DNA of 64,000 bases from Inia geoffrensis (lineage: Eukaryota > Chordata > Mammalia > Artiodactyla > Iniidae). The notes below the pieces were generated by a model. The model made no database searches. It had not been told where the DNA came from and saw only the letters and a list, made by a program, of their open reading frames with translations. Both the position numbers and the translations under genes were made by a program. This document shows positions 1 to 64,000 of this stretch, one piece after another. The number at the start of each line of letters is the position of its first letter. Position 1 is the first letter of the stretch. The stretch covers positions 118,295 through 182,294 of the forward strand of contig JAZAQT010000544.1 of assembly GCA_036417435.1 (NCBI GenBank), written 5' to 3'.

Positions 1-131
1 GGTGGGGCCTCTCTAATGAAGTGGGCTGGAGGTGGGAACTTGCCTAGCAGGAGCTGTGGAGATCCGCTTTCTTCATAGACCTTCCCTCTCAGCTGTTTCA
101 CCATCATTTGGGTACACCAGTCTGTGCTTAC

Positions 132-262
132 CTGTAGGAGGGCCCTGTTGGATCGGCAGATTGTGGTACCACGCGGCGGAGAACAGCAGCAGCATCCTCC
201 AGCCGCGGAACACAGGCCTCCTGAGGCTCCAGGGGTCTGACGCCAGCCGACGTCACAGAGGC
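132..262 (-). other. Candidate 131-nt exon, minus strand, alpha (U1)
   Basis: On the minus strand TTTCTTACCTCAG precedes 262 as an acceptor and CTACAG|GTAAGC at 137-126 is a near-consensus donor, framing a 131-nt segment that would recur in each alpha. The beta counterpart would be 1959-1749 with a poorer acceptor, and in U5, U11 and U14 betas the donor's last exon base is changed (GCTTACGTG). The acceptor overlaps the + strand donor, so at most one strand need be real. Confidence 0.2.
238..255. promoter_or_regulatory. CRE-like GACGTC palindrome with paired half-site in alpha (U1)
   Basis: CGACGTCA at 248-255 is one base from the ATF/CREB site TGACGTCA, and a further TGACG at 238-242 makes an inverted half-site pair with the CGTCA at 251-255. 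It is present in all 20 alphas, including the partial U20 (63203). The homologous beta position reads CGACATCA, so the palindrome is lost there and the X-box lies beside it. A binding role is only suggested. Confidence 0.35.
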
Positions 263-267
263 CTGAG

Positions 268-333
268 GTAAGAAAGTGGCCATTTCGTAACCCCTTACTT
301 GCCTTGTCATTGAACAGTCCTTTTCTCTTTCAG
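268..333 (+). other. Candidate 66-nt intron, + strand, alpha (U1)
   Basis: CTGAG|GTAAGA at 263-273 fits the splice-donor consensus, and CCTTTTCTCTTTCAG ending at 333 is a strong polypyrimidine-acceptor. A CTTAC between them could serve as branch point. The preceding segment 93-267 is itself preceded by an acceptor-like CTTCCCTCTCAG ending at 92, giving a candidate 175-nt exon. All 20 alphas keep these signals. 66 nt is near the lower limit for a mammalian intron and there is no transcript evidence. Confidence 0.25.
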
Positions 334-380
334 CATAGTTTATATACAATGCTGCGTCTCTTTGAGTTCTAAAGCCACCT

Positions 381-1200
381 GATGCATTATAAACGTAGCT
401 CTACATGTAGGGTTTCGGATTCTTTGCTCTGTTATTTAACGAGGAATATTTGGTAGAGTCCCATGTTCTTTTGGGTGAGTCGCCCTTGATGAGCACTTTT
501 TCATACGTTAAATGTGTTTCTGTTAATCCCAATCTCCTAATTCACTCTTCCGCGGTCTCCAATCTACCCCTTTGGGAACTCCTCGCTTCTTTCTTCCCTT
601 TGTGAACCTGTGTTTCCTTTCTTTACTAACTTCCTTTGTATCCCTATGTAGACTGCACACATAAGGGATATCCGGGTATATGTGTCTTGCTGCCTCTAAT
701 TGACCAGAATAAGTGAGATCATCTAGTGCTCCACCCATGCTGCTGCAAATACTATGAGTGCATTTTGTTCTCTGGCTGCGTGGTAGTCGAGCATGTGTAG
801 GTAGCGGAACATCTTTCTCCCTTCACCCCTCGCTCGACAGTTCGTTCGTTTGTATGTCTTGGCTGTGGTCAAGGGTACCACAACGACTGCTGGGGTGCAA
901 GAGCTTCCTTCCAATGATGCTAGTGTCTGGTTATACGACCTGCAGCGGGGTTGCCGAATCTCGTGATACCTCCAGTGTTTAGTTTGGTAAGGAATGTGCC
1001 TACTGATCCTCATACCGGCTGTTACCAATTTACAATCCCACCAACAGCAATAGCTGGCTTCACTTTGTGGCCTGCCCTCTTGAGCACTTAAAATTTTAGG
1101 GTTTGAGAGGACTTCAGCCAGGGATCAACTCGTCTAGCTTTCTTTTCACTCTCTAATCATGAGAGACCTTGAGCATCTTTTCATTTGAATGTGCTGTTTT
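381..1200 (-). mobile_element. Decayed L1 3' end, antisense, in the alpha monomer (U1 as representative)
   Basis: Read on the + strand, this tract follows the order of landmarks I know from the reverse complement of mammalian L1 3' ends: TTAATCCCAATCTCCTAATTC (527 onward) against the L1 'TTAATCCCAAACTCCTAATT'; TAGACTGCACACATAAG near 650; CCATGCTGCTGCAAAT near 736; a TGTCTTGGCTGTGG segment near 856; GGGGTGCAAGAG near 892; TTTACAATCCCACCAACAG near 1029; and CTCTAATCATG...GAGCATCTTTTCATTTG at 1151-1188. On the minus strand 723-788 still translates as DYHAA...FAAAWVEH, close to the EYYSA...FAATWMDLE C-terminal stretch of L1 ORF2-like sequence. The element is far from intact, has no open ORF2, and lacks its 5' end. 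The same tract lies at unit start +380 to +1199 in all alphas. Confidence 0.8.
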
Positions 1201-1395
1201 CTAAAACGCGGGTGACTACCACTGAGGTCTTGTAAGGTTTCTGCCTGAGAGTCGGGCCTGATGTGGATTCATTTCAGATTGCCTAGCCCAGGATATTTCC
1301 TGAGGGCAGGGTTGTGTTTTCAAAGCCGCAGGCTCTAGGTCTTGTGAATGACAGTTGCCCTTCAGCACAGTTGGTAAGGTTGTTACGGCAGTGTG

Positions 1396-1409
1396 CCACA
1401 AGGCGGCAG
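1396..1409 (+). promoter_or_regulatory. CTCF-like motif, alpha type (U1; 19 identical copies)
   Basis: CCACAAGGCGGCAG fits the commonly quoted CTCF core CCGCGNGGNGGCAG with two differences and sits in GTGCCACAAGGCGGCAGCAC. The core is unchanged in all 19 complete alphas, at 1396, 4711, 8027, 11340, 14656, 17967, 21278, 24594, 27905, 31216, 34532, 37845, 41160, 44476, 47787, 51098, 54414, 57725 and 61036, always on the same strand. It lies just downstream of the L1 tract. Binding is inferred from motif only; the alpha form is the weaker of the two. Confidence 0.6.
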
Positions 1410-1830
1410 CACTACTCCGTGTCGTCTCTGGTAACTTGGGGAAAGAAAGTCTTAGACGGGGTCCCGGTGTTGGATTGGAAATGGGGAGTCGAACGTGGCT
1501 AAACACACACTTCTGGGCTTGTGTATGCTCACCTCCTGCCCCTTAACCTGCACTGCCCCACCACAGACAAATCGCAAGCCTTGCAAGTGGGCCATTCGGA
1601 GGGTGCCGTGGTTCGCAGGTGGGGTGACTCTAATGAAGTTGGCTGGAGGTGGGAACGTGCCTAGCAGGAGCTGTGAAGATCCGGTTACTTCACCGCTCTT
1701 CCCTCTCAGCTGCTCCACCCTCATTTGGGTACACCAGGCTTTGCTTACCTGTAGGAGGGCCACGTTGGATCGGGAGATTGGGGTATCACGCAGGGGAGAA
1801 TGGGCAATAGCGGTCCGGGGTGCCGCTTGT

Positions 1831-1930
1831 CAGGTGGCACGTCCTCCTGCCTTGATGCCTCAGCAGCAGCATGCTCCGGCCGTGGGACCCAGGTCTGCCG
1901 TGGGACCCAGGCCTGCTTAGGCTCCAGGGG
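1831..1930 (+). repeat. Beta-specific GC-rich insert with an 18-bp tandem duplication (U1)
   Basis: Beta is about 80 bp longer than alpha mainly here. After CACGCAGGGGAGAA beta has extra GC-rich sequence (about 1800-1860) with no alpha counterpart, followed by CCGTGGGACCCAGGTCTG and CCGTGGGACCCAGGCCTG in tandem at about 1880-1915, where alpha has a single CCGCGGGACACAGGCCTC. The insert and duplication are present in every beta, so they predate amplification of the dimer. Confidence 0.75.
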
Positions 1931-1931
1931 C

Positions 1932-1945
1932 GTTACCGTGGTAAC
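1932..1945. promoter_or_regulatory. RFX-type X-box palindrome in beta (U1; 19 identical copies)
   Basis: GTTACCGTGGTAAC fits the full X-box consensus GTNRCC-NN-RGYAAC bound by RFX proteins, and flanking C and G extend the arms to 7 bp around a 2-nt centre. It occurs once per beta and in no alpha: 1932, 5247, 8563, 11876, 15192, 18503, 21814, 25130, 28441, 31752, 35068, 38381, 41696, 45012, 48323, 51634, 54950, 58261, 61572. It lies about 20 bp upstream of the splice-donor-like CCTGAGGTAAC. Confidence 0.55.
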
Positions 1946-1964
1946 GACATCACAGACACCTGAG

Positions 1965-2030
1965 GTAACAGAGTAGGCATTTCTTAACCCCTTACTTGCC
2001 TTGTCATTGTACAGTACTTTTCCCTTTCAG
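1965..2030 (+). other. Candidate 66-nt intron, + strand, beta (U1)
   Basis: The beta counterpart keeps exactly the same 66-nt length: CTGAG|GTAACA at 1960-1970 (a weaker donor than in alpha) and ACTTTTCCCTTTCAG ending at 2030. The candidate upstream exon is 1710-1964, longer than in alpha because of the GC-rich insert. Confidence 0.2.
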
Positions 2031-2077
2031 CCTAGTTCATATACAATGTTGCGTCTGTTTGAGTTCTACAGCCACTT

Positions 2078-2900
2078 GATGCAATTATACATGTAGCTAT
2101 ACCCTTAGGGTTTCGGATTCTTTGCACTCTTCGCGTATTGAGGAATGTTTTGTAGCGTTCCCTGTGATTGAGAGTGGGTCGCCCTTGAGCACTTTTTGAT
2201 AAGTTAAGCGTGTTTCTGTGAATCCCGACCTCCTACTTCACCCTTCCCCGTTCTCCAATTTCCCCCTCAGGGAACTCCAGGCTTCGTTCTTCCCTTTGTG
2301 AACCTGTGTTTCCTATGTGGACTAGCTTCCTTAGTATCCGTATTTAGGCGGCAGACAAAAGTGGGATATCCTGGAATATGTGTCTTGCTGCCTCTAATTG
2401 ACCGGAATTAGTGAGATCATGTACTGCTGCACCCATGCTGCTGCAAAGAGTATGGGTTCATTTTGTTCTGTGGCTGAGTGGTAGTCGAGGGTGTGTAGGT
2501 AGCAGAACATCTTTCTCCATTCACCCCTCGCTCCCCATTCCGTTCATTTCTCTGTCTTGGCTGCGGTCATGGGAACCGCAAGGACCGCTGAGGTGCAAGA
2601 GCTTTCTTCCAATGATGCTAGTGTCTGGTTATACGACCTGCAGCGGGGTTGCCGAATCTCGTGGTACCTGCAGTGTTTAGTTTGGTAAGGAATATGCCTA
2701 GTGTTCCTCATACCGGCTGTTAGCAATTTACATTCCCACCAATAGCAATAGCTGGCTTCTCCTTTTGGCATGCCCTCTTGAGCACTTACGCTTTTAGCGT
2801 TTGAGAGGACTGCAGCCAGGGAACACCTCGTCTAGCTTTCTTTGCACTCTCTAATCATGGCAGATCCTGAGCATCTTTTCTTTTCAATGTGCTGTTTTCT
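2078..2900 (-). mobile_element. Decayed L1 3' end, antisense, in the beta monomer (U1 as representative)
   Basis: Paralogous to the alpha tract and in the same order. Some segments are closer to L1 than in alpha: GCAATTATACATGTAGC near 2081, GTTCCCTGTG near 2157 (L1 commonly has GTTCCCTGTGCTATACAG), and TTTACATTCCCACCAATAG near 2727. Because alpha and beta contain the same L1 segment with the same ends, the L1 insertion predates the split of the two monomers. The tract is at beta start +460 to +1282 in every beta. Minus-strand frames are broken. Confidence 0.8.
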
Positions 2901-3093
2901 ACAACGCGGGTGAGTACCACTGAGTTCTTGAAAGGTTCCTGCCTCAGGGTCGGGCGTGATTTGAATTCGTTTCAGTTTCCCTAGCCCAGGATATTTCTTG
3001 AGGGCTGGGTTGTGTCTTCAAAGCCGCAGGCCGTAGGCCTTGTGGATGATAGGTGCCCTTCAGCACAGTTGGTAATATTGTTACGGCAGTTTG

Positions 3094-3107
3094 CCACGAG
3101 GTGGCAG
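3094..3107 (+). promoter_or_regulatory. CTCF-like motif, beta type (U1; 19 identical copies)
   Basis: CCACGAGGTGGCAG differs from CCGCGNGGNGGCAG at one base, and the wider GTGCCACGAGGTGGCAGCA fits the 19-position CTCF consensus at about 17 positions. The core is unchanged in all 19 betas: 3094, 6409, 9725, 13038, 16349, 19660, 22976, 26287, 29598, 32914, 36230, 39543, 42858, 46169, 49480, 52796, 56107, 59418 and 62734. All share the orientation of the alpha motifs, so the array offers one same-direction site about every 1.6-1.7 kb. Confidence 0.72.
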
Positions 3108-3315
3108 CACTGCTCCGTGTCGTCTCTGGTAACGTGGGGAAAGAAAGCCTTAGCGGGCTTCCCGATGTTGGACTGGAAATGGGGAGTCGAACGTGGCTAA
3201 ACACACGCCCCTCGGTTTTTGTAGGCTCACCTCCTGCCCCTTAACCTGCACTGCCCCACCTCAGGCATATCGCAAGGCTTGCAAGTGGGCTACTCGTAGG
3301 GTGCCGTGGTTCGCA

Positions 3316-6300
3316 GGTGGGGCCTCTCTAATGAAGTGGGCTGGAGGTGGGAACTTGCCTAGCAGGAGCTGTGGAGATCCGCTTTCTTCACAGCCTTTCC
3401 CTCTCAGCTGTTTCACCATCATTTGGGTACACCAGTCTGTGCTTACCTGTAGGAGGGCCCTGTTGGATCGGCAGATTGTGGTACCACGCGGCGGAGAACA
3501 GCAGCAGCATCCTCCAGCCGCGGGACACAGGCCTCCTGAGGCTCCAGGGGTCTGACGCCAGCCGACGTCACAGAGGCCTGAGGTAAGAAAGTGGCCATTT
3601 CGTAACCCCTTACTTGCCTTGTCATTGAACAGTCCTTTTCTCTTTCAGCATAGTTTATATACAATGCTGCGTCTCTTTGAGTTCTAAAGCCACCTGACGC
3701 ATTATAAACGTAGCTCTACATGTAGGGTTTCGGATTCTTTGCTCTGTTATTTAACGAGGAATATTTGGTAGAGTCCCATGTTCTTTTGGGTGAGTCGCCC
3801 TTGATGAGCACTTTTTCATACGTTAAATGTGTTTCTGTTAATCCCAATCTCCTAATTCACTCTTCCGCGGTCTCCAATCTACCCCTTTGGGAACTCCTCG
3901 CTTCTTTCTTCCCTTTGTGAACCTGTGTTTCCTTTCTTTACTAACTTCCTTTGTATCCCTATGTAGACTGCACACATAAGGGATATCCGGGTATATGTGT
4001 CTTGCTGCCTCTAATTGACCAGAATAAGTGAGATCATCTAGTGCTCCACCCATGCTGCTGCAAATACTATGAGTGCATTTTGTTCTCTGGCTGCGTGGTA
4101 GTCGAGCATGTGTAGGTAGCGGAACATCTTTCTCCCTTCACCCCTCGCTCGACAGTTCGTTCGTTTGTATGTCTTGGCTGTGGTCAAGGGTACCACAACG
4201 ACTGCTGGGGTGCAAGAGCTTCCTTCCAATGATGCTAGTGTCTGGTTATACGACCTGCAGCGGGGTTGCCGAATCTCGTGGTACCTCCAGTGTTTAGTTT
4301 GGTAAGGAATGTGCCTACTGATCCTCATACCGGCTGTTACCAATTTACAATCCCACCAACAGCAATAGCTGGCTTCACTTTGTGGCCTGCCCTCCTGAGC
4401 ACTTAAAATTTTAGGGTTTGAGAGGACTTCAGCCAGGGATCAACTCGTCTAGCTTTCTTTTCACTCTCTAATCATGAGAGACCTTGAGCATCTTTTCATT
4501 TGAATGTGCTGTTTTCTAAAACGCGGGTGACTACCACTGAGGTCTTGTAAGGTTTCTGCCTGAGAGTCGGGCCTGATGTGGATTCATTTCAGATTGCCTA
4601 GCCCAGGATATTTCCTGAGGGCAGGGTTGTGTTTTCAAAGCCGCAGGCTCTAGGTCTTGTGAATGACAGTTGCCCTTCAGCACAGTTGGTAAGGTTGTTA
4701 CGGCAGTGTGCCACAAGGCGGCAGCACTACTCCGTGTCGTCTCTGGTAACTTGGGGAAAGAAAGTCTTAGACGGGGTCCCGGTGTTGGATTGGAAATGGG
4801 GAGTCGAACGTGGCTAAACACACACCTCTGGGCTTGTGTATGCTCACCTCCTGCCCCTTAACCTGCACTGCCCCACCACAGACAAATCGCAAGCCTTGCA
4901 AGTGGGCCATTCGGAGGGTGCCGTGGTTCGCAGGTGGGGTGACTCTAATGAAGTTGGCTGGAGGTGGGAATCTGCCTAGCAGGAGCTGTGAAGATCCGGT
5001 TACTTCACCGCTCTTCCCTCTCAGCTGCTCCACCCTCATTTGGGTACACCAGGCTTTGCTTACCTGTAGGAGGGCCACGTTGGATCGGGAGATTGGGGTA
5101 TCACGCAGGGGAGAATGGGCAATAGCGGTCCGGGGTGCCGCTTGTCAGGTGGCACGTCCTCCTGCCTTGATGCCTCAGCAGCAGCATGCTCCGGCCGTGG
5201 GACCCAGGTCTGCCGTGGGACCCAGGCCTGCTTAGGCTCCAGGGGCGTTACCGTGGTAACGACATCACAGACACCTGAGGTAACAGAGTAGGCATTTCTT
5301 AACCACTTACTTGCCTTGTCATTGTACAGTACTTTTCCCTTTCAGCCTAGTTCATATACAATGTTGCGTCTGTTTGAGTTCTACAGCCACTTGATGCAAT
5401 TATACATGTAGCTATACCCTTAGGGTTTCGGATTCTTTGCACTCTTCGCGTATTGAGGAATGTTTTGTAGCGTTCCCTGTGATTGAGAGTGGGTCGCCCT
5501 TGAGCACTTTTTGATAAGTTAAGCGTGTTTCTGTGAATCCCGACCTCCTACTTCACCCTTCCCCGTTCTCCAATTTCCCCCTCAGGGAACTCCAGGCTTC
5601 GTTCTTCCCTTTGTGAACCTGTGTTTCCTATGTGGACTAGCTTCCTTAGTATCCGTATTTAGGCGGCAGACAAAAGTGGGATATCCTGGAATATGTGTCT
5701 TGCTGCCTCTAATTGACCGGAATTAGTGAGATCATGTACTGCTGCACCCATGCTGCTGCAAAGAGTATGGGTTCATTTTGTTCTGTGGCTGAGTGGTAGT
5801 CGAGGGTGTGTAGGTAGCAGAACATCTTTCTCCATTCACCCCTCGCTCCCCATTCCGTTCATTTCTCTGTCTTGGCTGCGGTCTTGGGAACCGCAAGGAC
5901 CGCTGGGGTGCAAGAGCTTTCTTCCAATGATGCTAGTGTCTGGTTATACGACCTGCAGCGGGGTTGCCGAATCTCGTGGTACCTGCAGTGTTTAGTTTGG
6001 TAAGGAATATGCCTAGTGTTCCTCATACCGGCTGTTAGCAATTTACATTCCCACCAATAGCAATAGCTGGCTTCTCCTTTTGGCATGCCCTCTTGAGCAC
6101 TTACGCTTTTAGCGTTTGAGAGGACTGCAGCCAGGGAACACCTCGTCTAGCTTTCTTTGCACTCTCTAATCATGACAGATCCTGAGCATCTTTTCTCTTC
6201 AATGTGCTGTTTTCTACAACGCGGGTGAGTACCACTGAGTTCTTGAAAGGTTCCTGCCTCAGGGTCGGGCGTGATTTGAATTCTTTTCAGTTTCCCTAGC

Positions 6301-6630
6301 CCAGGATATTTCTTGAGGGCTGGGTTGTGTCTTCAAAGCCGCAGGCCGTAGGCCTTGAGGATGATAGGTGCCCTTCAGCACAGTTGGTAAGATTGTTACG
6401 GCAGTGTGCCACGAGGTGGCAGCACTGCTCCGTGTCGTCTCTGGTAACGTGGGGAAAGAAAGCCTTAGCGGGCTTCCCGGTGTTGGACTGGAAATGGGGA
6501 GTCGAACGTGGCTAAACACACGCCCCTCGGTTTTTGTAGGCTCACCTCCTGCCCCTTAACCTGCACTGCCCCACCGCAGGCATATCGCAAGCCTTGCAAG
6601 TGGGCTACTCGGAGGGTGCCGTGGTTCGCA
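3316..6630 (+). repeat. Macrosatellite unit U2 (beta from 4933)
   Basis: 3,315 bp. CTCF-like cores at 4711 and 6409, X-box at 5247, YY1-like position at 4951 is the non-matching AAGTTGGC. Its alpha shares the CTGACGCATTATAAACG form near 3697 with U13, which is its closest relative over the alpha monomer. Confidence 0.95.
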
Positions 6631-9600
6631 GGTGGGGTCTCTCTAATGAAGTGGGCTGGAGGTGGGAACTTGCCTAGCAGGAGCTGTGGAGATCCGCTTT
6701 CTTCAAAGCCCTTCCCTCTCAGCTGTTTCACCATCATTTGGGTACACCAGGCTGTGCTTACCTGTAGGAGGGCCCTGTTGGATCGGCAGATTGTGGTACC
6801 ACGCAGCGGAGAACAGCAGCAGCATCCTCCAGCCGCGGGACACAGGCCTCCTGAGGCTCCAGGGGTCTGACGCCAGCCGACGTCACAGAGGCCTGAGGTA
6901 AGAAAGTGGCCATTTCGTAACCCCTTACTTGCCTTGTGATTGAACAGTCCTTTTCTCTTTCAGCATAGTTTATATACAATGCTGCGTCTCTTTGAGTTCT
7001 ACAGCCACTTGACGCAATTATAAACGTAGCTCTACCTGTAGGGTTTCGGATTCTTTGCCCTGTTACTTATCGAGGAATATTTGGTAGAGTCCCATGTTCT
7101 TTTGGGTGAGTCGCCCTTGATGAGCACTTTTTCATACGTTAAATGTGTTTCTGTTAATCCCAATCTCCTAATTCACTCTTCCCCGTTCTCCAATCTCCCC
7201 CTTTGGGAACTCCTCGCTTCTTTCTTCCCTTTGTGAACCTGTGTTTCCTTTCTTTACTAACTTCCTTTGTATCCCTATGTAGACTGCACACATAAGGGAT
7301 ATCCGGGTATATGTGTCTTGCTGCCTCTAATTGACCAGAATTAGTGAGATCATCTAGTGCTCCACCCATGCTGCTGCAAATACTATGAGTGCATTTTGTT
7401 CTATTGCTGCGTGGTAGTCGAGCATGTGTAGGTAGCGGAACATCTTTCTCCCTTCACCCCTCGCTCGACAGTTCGTTCGTTTGTATGTCTTGGCTGTGGT
7501 CAAGGGTACCACAACGACTGCTGGGGTGCAAGAGCTTCCTTCCAATGATGCTAGTGTCTGGTTATACGACCTGCAGCGGGGTTGCCGAATCTCGTGGTAC
7601 CTCCAGTGTTTAGTTTGGTAAGGAATGTGCCTACTGATCCTCATACCGGCTGTTACCAATTTACAATCCCACCAACAGCAATAGCTGGCTTCACTTTGTG
7701 GCCTGCCCCCTTGAGCACTTAAAATTTTAGGGTTTGAGAGGACTTCAGCCAGGGATCAACTCGTCTAGCTTTCTTTTCACTCTCTAATCATGAGAGACCT
7801 TGAGCATCTTTTCATTTGAATGTGCTGTTTTCTAAAACGCGGGTGAATACCACTGAGGTCTTGTAAGGTTTCTGCCTGAGAGTCGGGCCTGATGTGGATT
7901 CATTTCAGATTGCCTAGCCCAGGATATTTCCTGAGGGCAGGGTTGTGTTTTCAAAGCCGCAGGCTCTAGGTCTTGTGAATGACAGTTGCCCTTCGGCACA
8001 GTTGGTAAGGTTGTTACGGCAGTGTGCCACAAGGCGGCAGCACTACTCCGTGTCGTCTCTGGTAACTTGGGGAAAGAAAGTCTTAGACGGGGTCCCGGTG
8101 TTGGATTGGAAATGGGGAGTCGAACGTGGCTAAACACACACCTGTGGGCTTGTGTATGCTCACCTCCTGCCCCTTAACCTGCACTGCCCCACCACAGACA
8201 AATCGCAAGCCTTGCAAGTGGGCCATTCGGAGGGTGCCGTGGTTCGCAGGTGGGGCGACTCTAATGAAGATGGCTGGAGGTGGGAACCTGCCTAGCAGGA
8301 GCTGTGAAGATCCGGTTACTTCACCGCTCTTCCCTCTCAGCTGCTCCACCCTCATTTGGGTACACCAGGCTTTGCTTACCTGTAGGAGGGCCACGTTGGA
8401 TCGGGAGATTGGGGTATCACGCAGGGGAGAATGGGCAATAGCGGTCCGGGATGCCGCTTGTCAGGTGGCACGTCCTCCTGCCTTGATGCCTCAGCAGCAG
8501 CATGCTCCGGCCGTGGGACCCAGGTCTGCCGTGGGACCCAGGCCTGCTTAGGCTCCAGGGGCGTTACCGTGGTAACGACATCACAGACACCTGAGGTAAC
8601 AGAGTAGGCATTTTTTAACCCCTTACTTGCCTTGTCATTGTACAGTACTTTTCCCTTTCAGCCTAGTTCATATACAATGTTGCGTCTGTTTGAGTTCTAC
8701 AGCCACTTGATGCAATTATACATGTAGCTATACCCTTAGGGTTTCGGATTCTTTGCACTCTTCGCGTGTTGAGGAATGTTTTGTAGCGTTCCCTGTGATT
8801 GAGAGTGGGTCGCCCTTGAGCACTTTTTGATAAGTTAAGCGTGTTTCTGTGAATCCCGACCTCCTACTTCACCCTTCCCCGTTCTCCAATTTCCCCCTCA
8901 GGGAACTCCAGGCTTCGTTCTTCCCTTTGTGAACCTGTGTTTCCTATGTGGACTAGCTTCCTTAGTATCCGTATTTAGGCGGCAGACAAAAGTGGGATAT
9001 CCTGGAATATGTGTCTTGCTGCCTCTAATTGACCGGAAGTAGTGAGATCATGTACTGCTGCACCCATGCTGCTGCAAAGAGTATGTGTTCATTTTGTTCT
9101 GTGGCTGAGTGGTAGTCGAGGGTGTGTAGGTAGCAGAACATCTTTCTCCATTCACCCCTCGCTCCCCATTCCGTTCATTTCTCTGTCTTGGCTGCGGTCA
9201 TGGGTACCGCAAGGACCCCTGGGGTGCAAGAGCTTTCTTCCAATGATTCTAGTGTCTGGTTATACGACCTGCAGCGGGGTTGCCGAATCTCGTGGTACCT
9301 CCAGTGTTTAGATTGGTAAGGAATATGCCTAGTGTTCCTCATACCGGCTGTTAGCAATTTACATTCCCACCAATAGCAATAGCTGGCTTCTCTTTTTGGC
9401 ATGCCCACTTGAGCACTTACGCTTTTAGCGTTTGAGAGGACTGCAGCCAGGGAACACCTCGTCTAGCTTTCTTTGCACTCTCTAATCATGGCAGATCCTG
9501 AGCATCTTTTCTTTTCAATGTGCTGTTTTCTACAACGCGGGTGAGTACCACTGAGTTCTTGAAAGGTTCCTGCCTCAGGGTCGGGCGTGATTTGAATTCG

Positions 9601-9946
9601 TTTCAGTTTCCCTAGCCCAGGATATTTCTTGAGGGCTGGGTTGCGTCTTCAAAGCCGCAGGCCGTAGGCCTTGTGGATGATAGGTGCCCTTCAGCACAGT
9701 TGGTAAGATTGTTACGGCAGTGTGCCACGAGGTGGCAGCACTGCTCCGTGTCGTCTCTGGTAACGTGGGGAAAGAAAGCCTTAGCGGGCTTCCCGATGTT
9801 GGACTGGAAATGGGGAGTCGAACGTGGCTAAACACACGCCACTCGGTTTTTGTAGGCTCACCTCCTGCCCCTTAACCTGCACTGCCCCACCGCAGGCATA
9901 TCGCAAGGCTTGCAAGTGAGCTACTCGTAGGGTGCCGTGGTTCGCA
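6631..9946 (+). repeat. Macrosatellite unit U3 (beta from 8249)
   Basis: 3,316 bp. CTCF-like cores at 8027 and 9725, X-box at 8563, intact YY1-like AAGATGGC at 8267. It shares several otherwise rare variants with U11, such as TTGTTCTATTGCTGC near 7395, CAATGATTCTAGTG near 9240 and GTGAGCTACTCG near 9916, so U3 and U11 descend from one ancestral unit eight positions apart. Confidence 0.95.
8267..8274 (+). promoter_or_regulatory. YY1-like motif AAGATGGC in beta (first intact copy, U3)
   Basis: AAGATGGC followed by TG fits the YY1 core (AAGATGGCNGC-like) except at its outer end. Intact copies: 8267, 14896, 18207, 21518, 24834, 28145, 31456, 44716, 48027, 51338, 54654, 57965, 61276. U1, U2, U4, U12 and U13 have AAGTTGGC, and U11 has AAGATGTC, so the site varies among units. 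Alphas have AAGTGGGC and no match. Confidence 0.35.
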
Positions 9947-52700: not shown

Positions 52701-53017
52701 TGAGGGCTGGGTTGTGTCTTCAAAGCCGCAGGCCGTAGGCCTTGAGGATGATAGGTGCCCTTCAGCACAGTTGGTAAGATTGTTACGGCAGTGTGCCACG
52801 AGGTGGCAGCACTGCTCCGTGTCGTCTCTGGTAACGTGGGGAAAGAAAGCCTTAGCGGGCTTCCCGGTGTTGGACTGGAAATGGGGAGTCGAACGTGGCT
52901 AAACACACGCCCCTCGGTTTTTGTAGGCTCACCTCCTGCCCCTTAACCTGCACTGCCCCACCGCAGGCATATCGCAAGCCTTGCAAGTGGGCTACTCGGA
53001 GGGTGCCGTGGTTCGCA
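49702..53017 (+). repeat. Macrosatellite unit U16 (beta from 51320)
   Basis: 3,316 bp, partner of U7. CTCF-like cores at 51098 and 52796, X-box at 51634, YY1-like AAGATGGC at 51338. A at 52614 (GGTAAGTACC) differs from G at 22794 in U7. Confidence 0.95.
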
Positions 53018-56000
53018 GGTGGGGTCTCTCTAATGAAGTGGGCTGGAAGTGGGAACTTGCCTAGCAGGAGCTGTGGAGATCCGCTTTCTTCAAAGCCCTT
53101 CCCTCTCAGCTGTTTCACCATCATTTGGGTACACCAGGCTGTGCTTACCTGTAGGAGGGCCCTGTTGGATCGGCAGATTGTGGTACCACGCAGCGGAGAA
53201 CAGCAGCAGCATCCTCCAGCCGCGGGACACAGGCCTCCTGAGGCTCCAGGGGTCTGACGCCAGCCGACGTCACGGAGGCCTGAGGTAAGAAAGTGGCCAT
53301 TTCGTAACCCCATACTTGCCTTGTTATTGAACAGTCCTTTTCTCTTTCAGCATAGTTTACATACAATGCTGCGTCTCTTTGAGTTCTACAGCCACTTGAC
53401 GCAATTATAAACGTAGCTCTACCTGTAGGGTTTCGGATTCTTTGCCCTGTTACTTATCGAGGAATATTTGGTAGAGTCCCATGTTCTTTTGGGTGAGTCG
53501 CCCTTGATGAGCACTTTTTCATACGTTAAATGTGTTTCTGTTAATCCCAATCTCCTAATTCACTCTTCCCCGGTCTCCAATCTCCCCCTTTGGGAACTCC
53601 TCGCTTCTTTCTTCCCTTTGTGAACCTGTGTTTCCTTTCTTTACTAACTTCCTTTGTATCCCTATGTAGACTGCACACATAAGGGATATCCGCGTATATG
53701 TGTCTTGCTGCCTCTAATTGACCAGAATTAGTGAGATCATCTAGTGCTCCACCCATGCTGCTGCAAATACTATGAGTGCATTTTGTTCTATGGCTGCGTG
53801 GTAGTCGAGCGTGTGTAGGTAGCGGAACATCTTTCTCCCTTCACCCCTCGCTCGACAGTTCGTTCGTTTGTATGTCTTGGCTGTGGTCAAGGGTACCACA
53901 ACGACTGCTGGGGTGCAAGAGCTTCCTTCCAATGATGCTAGTGTCTGGTTATACGACCTGCAGCGGGGTTGCCGAATCTCGTGGTACCTCCAGTGTTTAG
54001 TTTGGTAAGGAATGTGCCTACTGATCCTCATACCGGCTGTTACCAATTTACAATCCCACCAACAGCAATAGCTGGCTTCACTTTGTGGCCTGCCCCCTTG
54101 AGCACTTAAAATTTTAGGGTTTGAGAGGACTTCAGCCAGGGATCAACTCGTCTAGCTTTCTTTTCACTCTCTAATCATGAGAGACCTTGAGCATCTTTTC
54201 ATTTGAATGTGCTGTTTTCTAAAACGCGGGTGAATACCACTGAGGTCTTGTAAGGTTTCTGCCTGAGAGTCGGGCCTGATGTGGATTCATTTCAGATTGC
54301 CTAGCCCAGGATATTTCCTGAGGGCAGGGTTGTGTTTTCAAAGCCGCAGGCTCTAGGTCTTGTGAATGACAGTTGCCCTTCAGCACAGTTGGTAAGGTTG
54401 TTACGGCAGTGTGCCACAAGGCGGCAGCACTACTCCGTGTCGTCTCTGGTAACTTGGGGAAAGAAAGTCTTAGACGGGGTCCCGGTGTTGGATTGGAAAT
54501 GGGGAGTCGAACGTGGCTAAACACACACCTGTGGGCTTGTGTATGCTCACCTCCTGCCCCTTAACCTGCACTGCCCCACCACAGACAAATCGCAAGCCTT
54601 GCAAGTGGGCCATTCGGAGGGTGCCGTGGTTCGCAGGTGGGGCGACTCTAATGAAGATGGCTGGAGGTGGGAACCTGCCTAGCAGGAGCTGTGAAGATCC
54701 GGTTACTTCACCGCTCTTCCCTCTCAGCTGCTCCACCCTCATTTGGGTACACCAGGCTTTGCTTACCTGTAGGAGGGCCACGTTGGATCGGGAGATTGGG
54801 GTATCACGCAGGGGAGAATGGGCAATAGCGGTCCGGGGTGCCGCTTGTCAGGTGGCACGTCCTCCTGCCTTGATGCCTCAGCAGCAGCATGCTCCGGCCG
54901 TGGGACCCAGGTCTGCCGTGGGACCCAGGCCTGCTTAGGCTCCAGGGGCGTTACCGTGGTAACGACATCACAGACACCTGAGGTAACAGAGTAGGCATTT
55001 TTTAACCCCTTACTTGCCTTGTCATTGTACAGTACTTTTCCCTTTCAGCCTAGTTCATATACAATGTTGCGTCTGTTTGAGTTCTACAGCCACTTGATGC
55101 AATTATACATGTAGCTATACCCTTAGGTTTTCGGATTCTTTGCACTCTTCGCGTATTGAGGAATGTTTTGTAGCGTTCCCTGTGATTTAGAGTGGGTCGC
55201 CCTTGAGCACTTTTTGATAAGTTAAGCGTGTTTCTGTGAATCCCGACCTCCTACTTCACCCTTCCCCGTTCTCCAATTTCCCCCTCAGGGAACTCCAGGC
55301 TTCGTTCTTCCCTTTGTGAACCTGTGTTTCCTATGTGGACTAGCTTCCTTAGTATCCGTATTTAGGCGGCAGACAAAAGTGGGATATCCTGGAATATGTG
55401 TCTTGCTGCCTCTAATTGACCGGAATTAGTGAGACCATGTACTGCTGCACCCATGCTGCTGCAAAGAGTGTGGGTTCATTTTGTTCTGTGGCTGAGTGGT
55501 AGTCGAGGGTGTGTAGGTAGCAGAACATCTTTCTCCATTCACCCCTCGCTCCCCATTCCGTTCATTTCTCTGTCTTGGCTGTGGTCATGGGAACCGCAAG
55601 GACCGCTGGGGTGCAAGAGCTTTCTTCCAAAGATGCTAGTGTCTGGTTATACGACCTGCAGCGGGGTTGCCGAATCTCGTGGTACCTCCAGTGTTTAGTT
55701 TGGTAAGGAATATGCCTAGTGTTCCTCATACCGGCTGTTAGCAATTTACATTCCCACCAATAGCAATAGCTGGCTTCTCTTTTTGGCATGCCCTCTTGAG
55801 CACTTACGCTTTTAGCGTTTGAGAGGACTGCAGCCAGGGAACACCTCGTCTAGCTTTCTTTGCACTCTCTAATCATGACAGATCCTGAGCATCTTTTCAA
55901 TGTGCTCTTTTCTACAACGCGGGTGAGTACCACTGAGTTCTTGAAAGGTTCCTGCCTCAGGGTCGGGCGTGATTTGAATTCGTTTCAGTTTCCCTAGCCC

Positions 56001-56328
56001 AGGATTTTTCTTGAGGGCCTGGTTGTGTCTTCAAAGCCGCAGGCCGTAGGCCTTGAGGATGATAGGTGCCCTTCAGCACAGTTGGTAAGATTGTTACGGC
56101 AGTGTGCCACGAGGTGGCAGCACTGCTCCGTGTCGTCTCTGGTAACGTGGGAAAAGAAAGCCTTAGCGGGCTTCCCGGTGTTGGACTGGAAATGGGGAGT
56201 CGAACGTGGCTAAACACACGCCCCTCGGTTTTTGTAGGCTCACCTCCTGCCCCTTAACCTGCACTGCCCCACCGCAGGCATATCGCAAGCCTTGATAGTG
56301 GGCTACTCGGAGGGTGCCGTGGTTCGCA
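53018..56328 (+). repeat. Macrosatellite unit U17 (beta from 54636)
   Basis: 3,311 bp, partner of U8. CTCF-like cores at 54414 and 56107, X-box at 54950, YY1-like AAGATGGC at 54654. C at 53360 is private. Confidence 0.95.
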
Positions 56329-59300
56329 GGTGGGGCCTCTCTAATGAAGTGGGCTGGAGGTGGGAACTTGCCTAGCAGGAGCTGTGGAGATCCGCTTTCT
56401 TCACAGCCCTTCCCTCTCAGCTGTTTCACCATCATTTGGGTACACCAGGCTGTGCTTACCTGTAGGAGGGCCCTGTTGGATCGGCAGATTGTGGTACCAC
56501 GCAGCGGAGAACAGCAGCAGCATCCTCCATCCGCGGGACACAGGCCTCCTGAGGCTCCAGGGGTCTGACGCCAGCCGACGTCACAGAGGCCTGAGGTAAG
56601 AAAGTGGCCATTTCGTAACCCCTTACTTGCCTTGTCATTGAACAGTCCTTTTCTCTTTCAGCATAGTTTATATACAATGCTGCGTCTCTTTGAGTTTTAC
56701 AGCCACTTGACGCAATTATAAACGTAGCTCTACCTGTAGGGTTTCGGATTCTTTGCCCTGTTACTTATCGAGGAATATTTGGTAGAGTCCCATGTTCTTT
56801 TGGGTGAGTCGCCCTTGATGAGCACTTTTTCATACGTTAAATGTGTTTGTGTTAATCCCAATCTCCTAATTCACTCTTCCCCGGTCTCCAATCTCCCACT
56901 TTGGGAACTCCTCGCTTCTTTCTTCCCTTTGTGAACCTGTGTTTCCTTTCTTTACTATCTTCCTTTGTATCCCTATGTAGACTGCACACATAAGGGATAT
57001 CCGGGTATATGTGTCTTGCTGCCTCTAATTGACCAGAATTAGTGAGATCATCTAGTGCTCCACCCATGCTGCTGCAAATACTATGAGTGCATTTTGTTCT
57101 ATGGCTGTGGGGTAGTCGAGCGTGTGTAGGTAGCGGAACATCTTTCTCCCTTCACCCCTCGCTCGACAGTTCGTTCGTTTGTATGTCTTGGCTGTGGTCA
57201 AGGGTACCACAACGACTGCTGGGGTGCAAGAGCTTCCTTCCAATGATGCTAGTGTCTGGTTATACGACCTGCAGCGGGGTTGCCGAATCTCGTGGTACCT
57301 CCAGTGTTTAGTTTGGTAAGGAATGTGCCTACTGATCCTCATACCGGCTGTTACCAATTTACAATCCCACCAACAGCAATAGCTGGCTTCACTTTGTGGC
57401 CTGCCCCCTTGAGCACTTAAAATTTTAGGGTTTGAGAGGACTTCAGCCAGGGATCAACTCGTCTAGCTTTCTTTTCACGCTCTAATCATGAGAGACCTTG
57501 AGCATCTTTTCATTTGAATGTGCTGTTTTCTAAAATGCGGGTGAATACCACTGAGGTCTTGTAAGGTTTCTGCCTGAGAGTCGGGCCTGATGTGGATTCA
57601 TTTCAGATTGCCTAGCCCAGGATATTTCCTGAGGGCAGGGTTGTGTTTTCAAAGCCGCAGGCTCTAGGTCTTGTGAATGACAGTTGCCCTTCAGCACAGT
57701 TGGTAAGGTTGTTACGGCAGTGTGCCACAAGGCGGCAGCACTACTCCGTGTCGTCTCTGGTAACTTGGGGAAAGAAAGTCTTAGACGGGGTCCCGGTGTT
57801 GGATTGGAAATGGGGAGTCGAACGTGGCTAAACACACACCTGTGGGCTTGTGTATGCTCACCTCCTGCCCCTTAACCTGCACTGCCCCACCACAGACAAA
57901 TCGCAAGCCTTGCAAGTGGGCCATTCGGAGGGTGCCGTGGTTCGCAGGTGGGGCGACTCTAATGAAGATGGCTGGAGGTGGGAACCTGCCTAGCAGGAGC
58001 TGTGAAGATCCGGTTACTTCACCGCTCTTCCCTCTCAGCTGCTCCACCCTCATTTGGGTACACCAGGCTTTGCTTACCTGTAGGAGGGCCACGTTGGATC
58101 GGGAGATTGGGGTATCACGCAGGGGAGAATGGGCAATAGCGGTCCGGGGTGCCGCTTGTCAGGTGGCACGTCCTCCTGCCTTGATGCCTCAGCAGCAGCA
58201 TGCTCCGGCCGTGGGACCCAGGTCTGCCGTGGGACCCAGGCCTGCTTAGGCTCCAGGGGCGTTACCGTGGTAACGACATCACAGACACCTGAGGTAACAG
58301 AGTAGGCATTTTTTAACCCCTTACTTGCCTTGTCATTGTACAGTACTTTTCCCTTTCAGCCTAGTTCATATACAATGTTGCGTCTGTTTGAGTTCTACAG
58401 CCACTTGATGCAATTATACATGTAGCTATACCCTTAGGTTTTCGGATTCTTTGCACTCTTCGCGTATTGAGGAATGTTTTGTAGCGTTCCCTGTGATTTA
58501 GAGTGGGTCGCCCTTGAGCACTTTTTGATAAGTTAAGCGTGTTTCTGTGAATCCCGACCTCCTACTTCACCCTTCCCCGTTCTCCAATTTCCCCCTCAGG
58601 GAACTCCAGGCTTCGTTCTTCCCTTTGTGAACCTGTGTTTCCTATGTGGACTAGCTTCCTTAGTATCCGTATTTAGGCGGCAGACAAAAGTGGGATATCC
58701 TGGAATATGTGTCTTGCTGCCTCTAATTGACCGGAATTAGTGAGACCATGTACTGCTGCACCCATGCTGCTGCAAAGAGTGTGGGTTCATTTTGTTCTGT
58801 GGCTGAGTGGTAGTCGAGGGTGTGTAGGTAGCAGAACATCTTTCTCCATTCACCCCTCGCTCCCCATTCCGTTCATTTCTCTGTCTTGGCTGTGGTCATG
58901 GGAACCGCAAGGACCGCTGGGGTGCAAGAGCTTTCTTCCAAAGATGCTAGTGTCTGGTTATACGACCTGCAGCGGGGTTGCCGAATCTCGTGGTACCTCC
59001 AGTGTTTAGTTTGGTAAGGAATATGCCTAGTGTTCCTCATACCGGCTGTTAGCAATTTACATTCCCACCAATAGCAATAGCTGGCTTCTCTTTTTGGCAT
59101 GCCCTCTTGAGCACTTACGCTTTTAGCGTTTGAGAGGACTGCAGCCAGGGAACACCTCGTCTAGCTTTCTTTGCACTCTCTAATCATGACAGATCCTGAG
59201 CATCTTTTCAATGTGCTCTTTTCTACAACGCGGGTGAGTACCACTGAGTTCTTGAAAGGTTCCTGCCTCAGGGTCGGGCGTGATTTGAATTCGTTTCAGT

Positions 59301-59639
59301 TTCCCTAGCCCAGGATTTTTCTTGAGGGCCTGGTTGTGTCTTCAAAGCCGCAGGCCGTAGGCCTTGAGGATGATAGGTGCCCTTCAGCACAGTTGGTAAG
59401 ATTGTTACGGCAGTGTGCCACGAGGTGGCAGCACTGCTCCGTGTCGTCTCTGGTAACGTGGGAAAAGAAAGCCTTAGCGGGCTTCCCGATGTTGGACTGG
59501 AAATGGGGAGTCGAACGTGGCTAAACACACGCCCCTCGGTTTTTGTAGGCTCACCTCCTGCCCCTTAACCTGCACTGCCCCACCGCAGGCATATCGCAAG
59601 CCTTGATAGTGGGCTACTCGGAGGGTGCCGTGGTTCGCA
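56329..59639 (+). repeat. Macrosatellite unit U18 (beta from 57947)
   Basis: 3,311 bp, partner of U9. CTCF-like cores at 57725 and 59418, X-box at 58261, YY1-like AAGATGGC at 57965. CACGCTCTAATC near 57477 is shared with U9. Confidence 0.95.
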
Positions 59640-62600
59640 GGTGGGGCCTCTCTAATGAAGTGGGCTGGAGGTGGGAACTTGCCTAGCAGGAGCTGTGGAG
59701 ATCCGCTTTCTTCACAGCCCTTCCCTCTCAGCTGTTTCACCATCATTTGGGTACACCAGGCTGTGCTTACCTGTAGGAGGGCCCTGTTGGATCGGCAGAT
59801 TGTGGTACCACGCAGCGGAGAACAGCAGCAGCATCCTCCAGCCGCGGGACACAGGCCTCCTGAGGCTCCAGGGGTCTGACGCCAGCCGACGTCACAGAGG
59901 CCTGAGGTAAGAAAGTGGCCATTTCGTAACCCCTTACTTGCCTTGTCATTGAACAGTCCTTTTCTCTTTCAGCATAGTTTATATACAATGCTGCGTCTCT
60001 TTGAGTTTTACAGCCACTTGACGCAATTATAAACGTAGCTCTACCTGTAGGGTTTCGGATTCTTTGCCCTGTTACTTATCGAGGAATATTTGGTAGAGTC
60101 CCATGTTCTTTTGGGTGAGTCGCCCTTGATGAGCACTTTTTCATACGTTAAATGTGTTTGTGTTAATCCCAATCTCCTAATTCACTCTTCACCGGTCTCC
60201 AATCTCCCACTTTGGGAACTCCTCGCTTCTTTCTTCCCTTTGTGAACCTGTGTTTCCTTTCTTTACTATCTTCCTTTGTATCCCTATGTAGACTGCACAC
60301 ATAAGGGATATCCGGGTATATGTGTCTTGCTGCCTCTAATTGACCAGAATTAGTGAGATCATCTAGTGCTCCACCCATGCTGCTGCAAATACTATGAGTG
60401 CATTTTGTTCTATGGCTGTGGGGTAGTCGAGCGTGTGTAGGTAGCGGAACATCTTTCTCCCTTCACCCCTCGCTCGACAGTTCGTTCATTTGTATGTCTT
60501 GGCTGTGGTCAAGGGTACCACAACGACTGCTGGGTTGCAAGAGCTTCCTTCCAATGATGCTAGTGTCTGGTTATACGACCTGCAGCGGGGTTGCCGAATC
60601 TCGTGGTACCTCCAGTGTTTAGTTTGGTAAGGAATGTGCCTACTGATCCTCATACCGGCTGTTACCAATTTACAATCCCACCAACAGCAATAGCTGGCTT
60701 CACTTTGTGGCCTGCCCCCTTGAGCACTTAAAATTTTAGGGTTTGAGAGGACTTCAGCCAGGGATCAACTCGTCTAGCTTTCTTTTCACTCTCTAATCAT
60801 GAGAGACCTTGAGCATCTTTTCATTTGAATGTGCTGTTTTCTAAAATGCGGGTGAATACCACTGAGGTCTTGTAAGGTTTCTGCCTGAGAGTCGGGCCTG
60901 ATGTGGATTCATTTCAGATTGCCTAGCCCAGGATATTTCCTGAGGGCAGGGTTGTGTTTTCAAAGCCGCAGGCTCTAGGTCTTGTGAATGACAGTTGCCC
61001 TTCGGCACAGTTGGTAAGGTTGTTACGGCAGTGTGCCACAAGGCGGCAGCACTACTCCGTGTCGTCTCTGGTAACTTGGGGAAAGAAAGTCTTAGACGGG
61101 GTCCCGGTGTTGGATTGGAAATGGGGAGTCGAACGTGGCTAAACACACACCTGTGGGCTTGTGTATGCTCACCTCCTGCCCCTTAACCTGCACTGCCCCA
61201 CCACAGACAAATCGCAAGCCTTGCAAGTGGGCCATTCGGAGGGTGCCGTGGTTCGCAGGTGGGGCGACTCTAATGAAGATGGCTGGAGGTGGGAACCTGC
61301 CTAGCAGGAGCTGTGAAGATCCGGTTACTTCACCGCTCTTCCCTCTCAGCTGCTCCACCCTCATTTGGGTACACCAGGCTTTGCTTACCTGTAGGAGGGC
61401 CACGTTGGATCGGGAGATTGGGGTATCACGCAGGGGAGAATGGGCAATAGCGGTCCGGGGTGCCGCTTGTCAGGTGGCACGTCCTCCTGCCTTGATGCCT
61501 CAGCAGCAGCATGCTCCGGCCGTGGGACCCAGGTCTGCCGTGGGACCCAGGCCTGCTTAGGCTCCAGGGGCGTTACCGTGGTAACGACATCACAGACACC
61601 TGAGGTAACAGAGTAGGCATTTTTTAACCCCTTACTTGCCTTGTCATTGTACAGTACTTTTCCCTTTCAGCCTAGTTCATATACAATGTTGCGTCTGTTT
61701 GAGTTCTACAGCCACTTGATGCAATTATACATGTAGCTATACCCTTAGGTTTTCGGATTCTTTGCACTCTTCGCGTATTGAGGAATGTTTTGTAGCGTTC
61801 CCTGTGATTTAGAGTAGGTCGCCCTTGAGCACTTTTTGATAAGTTAAGCGTGTTTCTGTGAATCCCGACCTCCTACTTCACCCTTCCCCGTTCTCCAATT
61901 TCCCCCTCAGGGAACTCCAGGCTTCGTTCTTCCCTTTGTGAACCTGTGTTTCCTATGTGGACTAGCTTCCTTAGTATCCGTATTTAGGCGGCAGACAAAA
62001 GTGGGATATCCTGGAATATGTGTCTTGCTGCCTCTAATTGACCGGAATTAGTGAGACCATGTACTGCTGCACCCATGCTGCTGCAAAGAGTGTGGGTTCA
62101 TTTTGTTCTGTGGCTGAGTGGTAGTCGAGGGTGTGTAGGTAGCAGAACATCTTTCTCCATTCACCCCTCGCTCCCCATTCCGTTCATTTCTCTGTCTTGG
62201 CTGCGGTCATGGGAACCGCAAGGACCGCTGGAGTGCAAGAGCTTTCTTCCAATGATGCTAGTGTCTGGTTATACGACCTGCAGCGGGGTTGCCGAATCTC
62301 GTGGTACCTCCAGTGTTTAGTTTGGTAAGGAATATGCCTAGTGTTCCTCATACCGGCTGTTAGCAATTTACATTCCCACCAATAGCAATAGCTGGCTTCT
62401 CCTTTTGGCATGCCCTCTTGAGCACTTACGCTTTTAGCGTTTGAGAGGACTGCAGCCAGGGAACACCTCGTCTAGCTTTCTTTGCACTCTCTAATCATGA
62501 CAGATCCTGAGCATCTTTTCTCTTCAATGTGCTGTTTTCTACAACGCGGGTGAGTACCACTGAGTTCTTGAAAGGTTCCTGCCTCAGGGTCGGGCGTGAT

Positions 62601-62955
62601 TTGAATTCGTTTCAGTTTCCCTAGCCCAGGATATTTCTTGAGGGCTGGGTTGTGTCTTCAAAGCCGCAGGCCGTAGGCCTTGAGGATGATAGGTGCCCTT
62701 CAGCACAGTTGGTAAGATTGTTACGGCAGTGTGCCACGAGGTGGCAGCACTGCTCCGTGTCGTCTCTGGTAACGTGGGGAAAGAAAGCCTTAGCGGGCTT
62801 CCCGGTGTTGGACTGGAAATGGGGAGTCGAACGTGGCTAAACACACGCCCCTCGGTTTTTGTAGGCTCACCTCCTGCCCCTTAACCTGCACTGCCCCACC
62901 GCAGGCATATCGCAAGCCTTGCAAGTGGGCTACTCGGAGGGTGCCGTGGTTCGCA
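59640..62955 (+). repeat. Macrosatellite unit U19 (beta from 61258)
   Basis: 3,316 bp, partner of U10. CTCF-like cores at 61036 and 62734, X-box at 61572, YY1-like AAGATGGC at 61276. Private A at 60488 and A at 61816. Confidence 0.95.
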
Positions 62956-64000
62956 GGTGGGGTCTCTCTAATGAAGTGGGCTGGAAGTGGGAACTTGCCT
63001 AGCAGGAGCTGTGGAGATCCGCTTTCTTCAAAGCCCTTCCCTCTCAGCTGTTTCACCATCATTTGGGTACACCAGGCTGTGCTTACCTGTAGGAGGGCCC
63101 TGTTGGATCGGCAGATTGTGGTACCACGCAGCGGAGAACAGCAGCAGCATCCTCCAGCCGCGGGACACAGGCCTCCTGAGGCTCCAGGGGTCTGACGCCA
63201 GCCGACGTCACGGAGGCCTGAGGTAAGAAAGTGGCCATTTCGTAACCCCATACTTGCCTTGTTATTGAACAGTCCTTTTCTCTTTCAGCATAGTTTATAT
63301 ACAATGCTGCGTCTCTTTGAGTTCTACAGCCACTTGACGCAATTATAAACGTAGCTCTACCTGTAGGGTTTCGGATTCTTTGCCCTGTTACTTATCGAGG
63401 AATATTTGATAGAGTCCCATGTTCTTTTGGGTGAGTCGCCCTTGATGAGCACTTTTTCATATGTTAAATGTGTTTCTGTTAATCCCAATCTCCTAATTCA
63501 CTCTTCCCCGTTCTCCAATCTCCCCCTTTGGGAACTCCTCGCTTCTTTCTTCCCTTTGTGAACCTGTGTTTCCTTTCTTTACTAACTTCCTTTGTATCCC
63601 TATGTAGACTGCACACATAAGGGATATCCGGGTATATGTGTCTTGCTGCCTCTAATTGACCAGAATTAGTGAGATCATCTAGTGCTCCACCCATGCTGCT
63701 GCATATACTATGAGTGCATTTTGTTCTATTGCTGCGTGGTAGTCGAGCATGTGTAGGTAGCGGAACATCTTTCTCCCTTCACCCCTCGCTCGACAGTTCG
63801 TTCGTTTGTATGTCTTGGCTGTGGTCAAGGGTACCACAACGACTGCTGGGGTGCAAGAGCTTCCTTCCAATGATGCTAGTGTCTGGTTATACGACCTGCA
63901 GCGGGGTTGCCGAATCTCGTGGTACCTCCAGTGTTTAGTTTGGTAAGGAATGTGCCTACTGATCCTCATACCGGCTGTTACCAATTTACAATCCCACCAA
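62956..64000 (+). repeat. Partial macrosatellite unit U20, cut by the window end
   Basis: 1,045 bp of an alpha monomer, ending inside the L1-derived tract before the CTCF-like site would be reached. It matches U11 (offset 29,820), including the variants TTTGATAGAGTCC near 63406 and CTGCATATAC near 63700. Confidence 0.95.

What the first reader, a model, noticed from the sequence alone, without database searches (positions are those of the whole stretch)
1..64000. Same-direction CTCF-like motif in every monomer of a 64-kb gene-free macrosatellite
All 38 complete monomers carry a 14-base CTCF-like core, all on the + strand, spaced 1,693-1,698 and 1,615-1,618 bp alternately, with no base change inside either core class across 19 copies. 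Established knowledge: DXZ4, an X-linked macrosatellite with about 3-kb units, binds CTCF in tandem orientation on the inactive X and forms a large domain boundary; FIRRE also has tandem CTCF sites. Inference: this array could act as a multi-CTCF boundary or loop anchor.
Basis: partly seen in the sequence, partly recalled or inferred. Interest (0 to 1): 0.85.

Follow-up and report, generated by a model that had tools for sequence, protein, structure and literature searches.

The report
L1-derived satellite with CTCF-like site
This stretch looks like an ordinary whale-and-dolphin-type satellite DNA built from a dead L1 jumping-gene fragment, and the CTCF-like motif in every copy is most simply a passenger copied along with it.

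Summary
In detail: 38 of 38 complete monomers carry the 14-base core, all on +, at the stated spacings. The inference does not follow. The sites are one inherited motif multiplied by array amplification, not 38 independent sites. "No base change" is expected: 60.6% (class A) and 64.3% (class B) of all 14-column windows are equally invariant. Between classes (87.6% identical) the core is no better kept than its surroundings. The B core is a good CTCF match (17.2 bits), the A core weaker (13.6 bits, recalled matrix); 10 and 90 of 2,000 dinucleotide shuffles reach these.

Both classes contain, antisense, the C-terminal part of LINE-1 ORF2 (E 4.7e-07 and 3.3e-05, only LINE-1 hits). L1 3'-end content is the published description of the common cetacean satellite, a heterochromatin satellite. 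Dimers are amplified in blocks. Most likely: heterochromatin satellite with a passenger CTCF-like motif. A DXZ4-like boundary is not favoured and CTCF binding was not testable. Species, chromosome and identity to published cetacean clones are untested.

The parts
1..62955 (+). 19 head-to-tail A-B dimers (3,311-3,316 bp) of an L1-derived satellite; 38 complete monomers
62956..64000 (+). incomplete last monomer (1,045 bp); the array runs off the window end
1..1617 (+). first A monomer (class length 1,615-1,618 bp; 19 copies, mean identity 98.9%)
1618..3315 (+). first B monomer (class length 1,693 or 1,698 bp; 19 copies, mean identity 99.0%); A and B consensus 87.6% identical
1396..1409 (+). first A-class CTCF-like core CCACAAGGCGGCAG (19 copies; 13.6 bits over 19 bases)
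3094..3107 (+). first B-class CTCF-like core CCACGAGGTGGCAG (19 copies; 17.2 bits over 19 bases in 18 copies, 19.8 in this first copy)
7363..7818 (-). in an A unit: relic of the L1 ORF2p C-terminus, residues 1091-1248, antisense, with stops
   Evidence: E 4.7e-07, read-through with X at stops; shorter piece without stops, (E 9.4e-05); coordinates by arithmetic from the alignment
2415..2897 (-). in a B unit: relic of the L1 ORF2p C-terminus, residues about 1088-1252, antisense, with stops
   Evidence: (E 3.3e-05)
13260..33135 (+). block of six dimers (d5-d10), itself two copies of a 3-dimer 9,938-bp unit; repeated at 43080-62955
   Evidence: 9 differing columns in 19,876 bp
43080..62955 (+). 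second copy of the six-dimer block (d14-d19), 29,820 bp downstream
1495..1920 (+). chance ORF across an A-B junction; its translation has a 71% identical relative (P0001) on a 1,726-bp unnamed ENA contig

Best explanation
The window is a piece of a large constitutive-heterochromatin satellite of the kind called the common cetacean satellite. Its ~1.6-1.7-kb monomer contains a 3'-terminal part of an L1 retrotransposon in antisense plus other sequence. Shown here: two monomer classes fixed as a dimer, the L1 ORF2 relic in both classes, and amplification of dimers in blocks. Inferred: repeated unequal exchange or block duplication spreads and homogenises the units, so any motif in the founder monomer, including one CTCF-like site, appears in every copy in the same direction and nearly without change. 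The site is most likely a passenger. The B-class site could bind CTCF where the DNA is open and unmethylated, but by default the array is expected to be methylated and closed (inferred). The role of the array, if any, would be that of bulk heterochromatin.
For: LINE-1 ORF2p is the only hit (4 of 4 distinct PDB sequences listed at E <= 1) for an A read-through (E 4.7e-07, residues 1091-1248), a B read-through (E 3.3e-05, residues 1088-1252) and an A piece without stops (E 9.4e-05). [quoted passage not shown] table entries of PMC8909793, and PMC6947457), and whale heterochromatin as 25-30% of the genome made of several repeat families; a 1,579-bp killer-whale unit is in the title of a listed reference (passage and reference list of PMC7763226). 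Homogenised block structure. Motif not more conserved than its surroundings. A relative from another source keeps the reading frame across the monomer junction at 71% identity, on a 1,726-bp contig.
Against: The host species is not identified; no published cetacean satellite sequence could be compared, and the two primary papers asked for are not held. Unit lengths here (1,615-1,618 and 1,693/1,698) differ from the 1,579 bp of the killer whale. One review table gives the source as the L1 3' UTR; what I tested and found is the end of ORF2, and 3' UTR homology was not tested. The B core is a good CTCF match, rare in shuffles (10 of 2,000). CpG observed/expected of 0.50-0.57 is high for an always-methylated repeat (recalled expectation). 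Pfam found no L1 domain (0 families for 7 pieces and 3); shorter pieces gave weak LINE-1 hits or none, and an unrelated designed protein reached E 0.0095.
Confidence: 0.74

Rival explanations
1. A multi-CTCF boundary or loop anchor in the manner of DXZ4: tandem same-direction CTCF sites stop cohesin on one chromosome or allele.
For: 38 same-direction cores; B core 17.2 bits; in Dxz4 the common polarity of the sites sets the direction of contacts (passage of PMC6985041).
Against: GC 50-52% and 117 CpG per 3.3-kb dimer against 61-65% GC and 154-192 CpG per ~3-kb primate DXZ4 monomer. [quoted passage not shown] 52% of windows do as well). The L1 relic points to a heterochromatin satellite.
Confidence: 0.06
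2. The same kind of thing in a different mammal: an L1-derived tandem satellite outside Cetacea, with an independent origin.
For: The species is unknown. L1-derived satellites are reported elsewhere, e.g. PROsat of Phodopus (passages of PMC9659126).
Against: [quoted passage not shown]
Confidence: 0.14
3. A CTCF site kept by selection inside heterochromatin, for example to block spreading or to order loops within the satellite.
For: The core is present in both diverged classes, 17 of 19 bases identical, and every one of the 38 sites passes p < 1e-5.
Against: That identity is typical of the unit. The two differences fall at matrix positions 8 and 12; both classes have a disfavoured base at 8, and all 19 A copies a strongly disfavoured one at 12. 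Both differences look like CpG decay from an ancestor that would score only 12.4 bits (the ancestry is inference).
Confidence: 0.06

Closest known systems
Common cetacean satellite DNA (Widegren et al. 1985; Kapitonov et al. 1998; only titles in reference lists seen)
   Same: Tandem units well over 1 kb containing L1 3'-terminal sequence; a long homogenised array.
   Different: Here a fixed A-B dimer amplified in a 9.94-kb three-dimer unit and a duplicated 19.9-kb block; unit lengths differ from the 1,579 bp of the killer whale. Whether published units carry the CTCF-like core, or a dimer, was not testable.
DXZ4 macrosatellite
   Same: Long same-direction tandem array with a CTCF-like core in each unit; dimer length near 3 kb.
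   Different: L1-derived, 50-52% GC, fewer CpGs, none of five simple-repeat types scanned on the + strand, no X linkage shown.
FIRRE / ICCE tandem repeats
   Same: Repeated CTCF-like sites.
   Different: Those lie inside genes with paired CTCF-YY1 sites (passage of PMC6985041); here the full YY1 motif AAGATGGCGGC (recalled) is absent on both strands and a shorter form occurs 13 times on the + strand; no gene was found in the part checked.
D4Z4 macrosatellite (search listing only)
   Same: 3.3-kb unit length, and a CTCF-dependent insulator is reported in the listed title.
   Different: No relation by sequence was tested; the 3.3 kb here is a dimer of L1-derived units.

Membership tests
[quoted passage not shown]
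   LINE-1 ORF2p residues 1091-1248 in A and 1088-1252 in B; the 3' UTR part was not tested
Common cetacean satellite | Long head-to-tail array of units longer than about 1.5 kb (1,579 bp in killer whale by title; about 1.75 kb in other whales is recalled) | tested here: met
   38 complete units of 1,615-1,698 bp; neither length equals the printed one
Common cetacean satellite | Sequence identity to published cetacean clones | not testable with these tools
   No such clone was found in the collections searched; papers not held
Common cetacean satellite | Host is a cetacean; heterochromatin location | not testable with these tools
   No genome held for the window
DXZ4 macrosatellite | GC 61-65% and 154-192 CpG per ~3-kb monomer (primates) | tested here: not met
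   GC 50.1% and 52.2%, CpG 51 + 66 = 117 per dimer; range from PMC3218863 passages
DXZ4 macrosatellite | Internal simple repeats such as GGGCC, CT, TAAA (primates) | tested here: not met
   0 runs of the five types scanned, + strand only
DXZ4 macrosatellite | X-linked, next to PLS3 | not testable with these tools
   window holds only the array; no genome held
DXZ4 macrosatellite | CTCF-like site in each unit, one direction | tested here: met
   (sequence match only, not binding)
Macrosatellite (units 2 to >12 kb, array limited to one or two locations; PMC3218863) | Restricted to one or two locations | not testable with these tools
   no genome held
CENP-B-box centromere satellite | CENP-B box | tested here: not met
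   0 strict or relaxed boxes on either strand (motif recalled)

The most novel reading that the evidence does not exclude
A cetacean-type heterochromatin satellite that carries a same-direction CTCF site every ~1.65 kb in very many copies, so that wherever it is demethylated (germline, early embryo) it becomes a huge one-way cohesin barrier and a sink for CTCF, unlike any single-locus macrosatellite.
Probability: 0.06. Interest if true: 0.75.

Novelty: new member of a known kind. Interest (0 to 1): 0.25.

Why it matters
If ordinary, it is a clean example of how an L1 fragment becomes a many-level satellite, and a caution that a motif repeated 38 times in a homogenised array is one observation. 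If the CTCF sites are bound, satellite heterochromatin would hold a very dense same-direction CTCF array, which would test how cohesin and CTCF behave in repeats.

Tried and rejected
DNA look-ups for relatives or contaminating copies found nothing: three patterns in viral contigs, the first 3,316 bases by blastn against plasmids and phages, one pattern in genome contigs, and related loci in genome contigs (41 stretches, none confirmed) and viral contigs (98, none confirmed). Of three protein searches one found a relative (1 protein); two with frames across the CTCF core found none, so conservation of the core in relatives stays untested.

Pfam gave no family for 7 pieces and 3 pieces. In the PDB sequence searches: the first A piece found LINE-1 at E 0.03 with one unrelated hit among five; a 49-residue B piece found LINE-1 only, at E 0.68; a 95-residue B piece found one unrelated hit at E 0.85; a 40-residue A piece upstream found five hits at E <= 10, none LINE-1, the best an unrelated designed protein at E 0.0095. 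The read-through that joins these frames found LINE-1 only. Whether the CTCF-like core lies in L1-derived DNA is not settled; the detected ORF2 match ends about 210 bp short of it in the A unit.

Papers: CTCF + cetacean + satellite gave one paper, whose passages are unrelated. A looser search listed 20 of 277 papers, none of those 20 with both CTCF and cetacean; CTCF binding in satellite repeats listed 15 of 49, none opened for that; a search on Arnason's work listed 20 of 177. Odontocete + telomere-to-telomere + satellite + centromere gave none; a whale-assembly search listed 8, none opened afterwards. A claim that the CTCF-like core is unreported would rest only on these searches of an open-licence library. 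Rejected: centromere satellite of CENP-B type (no box). Also mended on re-checking: 29.8 kb is the distance between two copies of a six-dimer block, not a regular nine-dimer period.
Full report
Observation. The pattern CCACNAGGNGGCAG occurs 38 times on the + strand and never on the - strand. There are 19 copies of CCACAAGGCGGCAG (class A) and 19 of CCACGAGGTGGCAG (class B), at 37 intervals of 1,693/1,698 and 1,615/1,617/1,618 bp. Cutting the window at a fixed junction gives 19 A units of 1,615-1,618 bp alternating with 19 B units of 1,693/1,698 bp, and one incomplete unit of 1,045 bp with no core.

What the regularity is worth. Mean pairwise identity is 98.9% within A and 99.0% within B, with 65 and 61 variable columns. 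Of all 14-column windows 60.6% (A) and 64.3% (B) are invariant over 19 copies, so an invariant core is what one expects of any 14 bases (random-placement estimate 0.56 and 0.60). The same direction follows from head-to-tail repetition. Between the A and B consensus (87.6% identity over 1,614 aligned columns, 87 gap columns) the 19-base site matches at 17 of 19; 52% of all 19-column windows do at least as well, and 68% of 14-column windows do as well as the 14-base core. There is no sign of extra constraint on the motif.

CTCF score. With the JASPAR MA0139.1 counts, recalled and not fetched, the A site scores 13.6 bits (p 7.6e-06), the B site 17.2 bits (p 8.2e-07) and the first B copy 19.8 bits on a uniform background, where these 38 are the only sites below p 1e-4 in the window. 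With a 41% GC background all 38 stand at p 1.6e-06 or better, and 37 weaker - strand sites also pass 1e-4. One base (C at matrix position 12) costs the A site about 4 bits. In 2,000 dinucleotide shuffles per consensus the best site reached the observed score 90 times for A and 10 times for B. So the match is real but amounts to one moderately unlikely event, chosen after looking, not 38. The two differences between A and B both look like CpG decay; an ancestor with both CpGs would score 12.4 bits (the ancestry is inference).

What the repeat is. Translating the - strand gives a relic of the C-terminus of LINE-1 ORF2p in both classes. For A, a stretch without stops matches LINE-1 ORF2p at E 9.4e-05, and a longer read-through with X at stops at 4.7e-07, residues 1091-1248. 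For B, the read-through matches at 3.3e-05, residues about 1088-1252. In some searches all four listed sequences are LINE-1 ORF2p. One rough scrambled control found nothing. Shorter pieces were weaker or negative: searches (LINE-1 at E 0.03, four of five hits; LINE-1 only, E 0.68; no LINE-1; an unrelated designed protein at E 0.0095), and Pfam gave no family. The relic lies at about 733-1188 of the A unit, antisense; the CTCF-like core, at 1397 of that unit, lies about 210 bp beyond it, and whether it is L1-derived is not known.

Identity. [quoted passage not shown] table entries in PMC8909793, and PMC6947457), all citing Kapitonov et al. 1998. PMC7763226 (passage and reference list) says that whale heterochromatin reaches 25-30% of the genome and is made of different repeat families, and lists a 1,579-bp killer-whale component (Widegren et al. 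1985). [quoted passage not shown] The two primary papers asked for are not held, and no cetacean DNA could be compared. The filing therefore rests on two met features (L1 3'-terminal content and long units in a long array), with sequence identity and host untested.

A relative. A chance ORF across an A-B junction (window 1495-1920) has one relative among the predicted proteins, P0001, 71% identical over 98% of the query, on a 1,726-bp ENA contig with no name. It keeps the frame across the monomer junction, and it aligns through the 60-bp stretch that B has and A lacks, which suggests that A lost it. Two searches with frames through the core found nothing.

Array structure. Dimers d5-d10 and d14-d19 differ in 9 columns over 19,876 bp and lie 29,820 bp apart. 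Within the block, d5-d7 and d8-d10 differ in 16 columns over 9,938 bp. Other pairs of dimers differ by up to 67 columns, and the nine-dimer distance is not a regular period: d2 and d11 differ in 63 columns, d3 and d12 in 50, d4 and d13 in 10. This is the mark of recent block duplication or unequal exchange (inference; an assembly effect was not excluded). No CENP-B box was found.

Against DXZ4. [quoted passage not shown] Here GC is 50.1% and 52.2%, CpG 117 per dimer, none of the five simple-repeat types scanned on the + strand is present, and the core shows no extra conservation. X linkage cannot be tested. In its favour, polarity of CTCF sites does matter in Dxz4 (passage of PMC6985041), and the B site would be a plausible binding site if open.

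Mechanism. Most likely an L1 3'-terminal fragment with adjoining DNA became a tandem founder, diverged into two classes, was fixed as a dimer, and was then amplified in blocks; the CTCF-like site came along. Shown: L1 relic, two classes, block structure, typical conservation of the core. Inferred: cetacean host, heterochromatin state, absence of CTCF binding in most cells.

Noticed in passing
13260-33135 and 43080-62955: Two 19,876-bp blocks with 9 differing columns, 29,820 bp apart: very recent block duplication inside the array, or possibly an assembly effect.
   Followed up: partly
1879-1916 and 18 further B units: An 18-bp duplication (GCCGTGGGACCCAGGCCT) in every B unit (19 rows); the A consensus lacks the extra copy.
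   Followed up: partly
A versus B units, near alignment column 184: B carries 60 bp absent from A; the unnamed relative P0001 aligns through it, so A probably lost it.
   Followed up: partly
A and B consensus units: CpG observed/expected of 0.50 (A) and 0.57 (B), higher than I would expect (recalled) for a permanently methylated satellite.
   Followed up: no
whole window: 25 scattered single TTAGGG and no CCCTAA on the + strand, and no TTAGGGTTAGGG.
   Followed up: no
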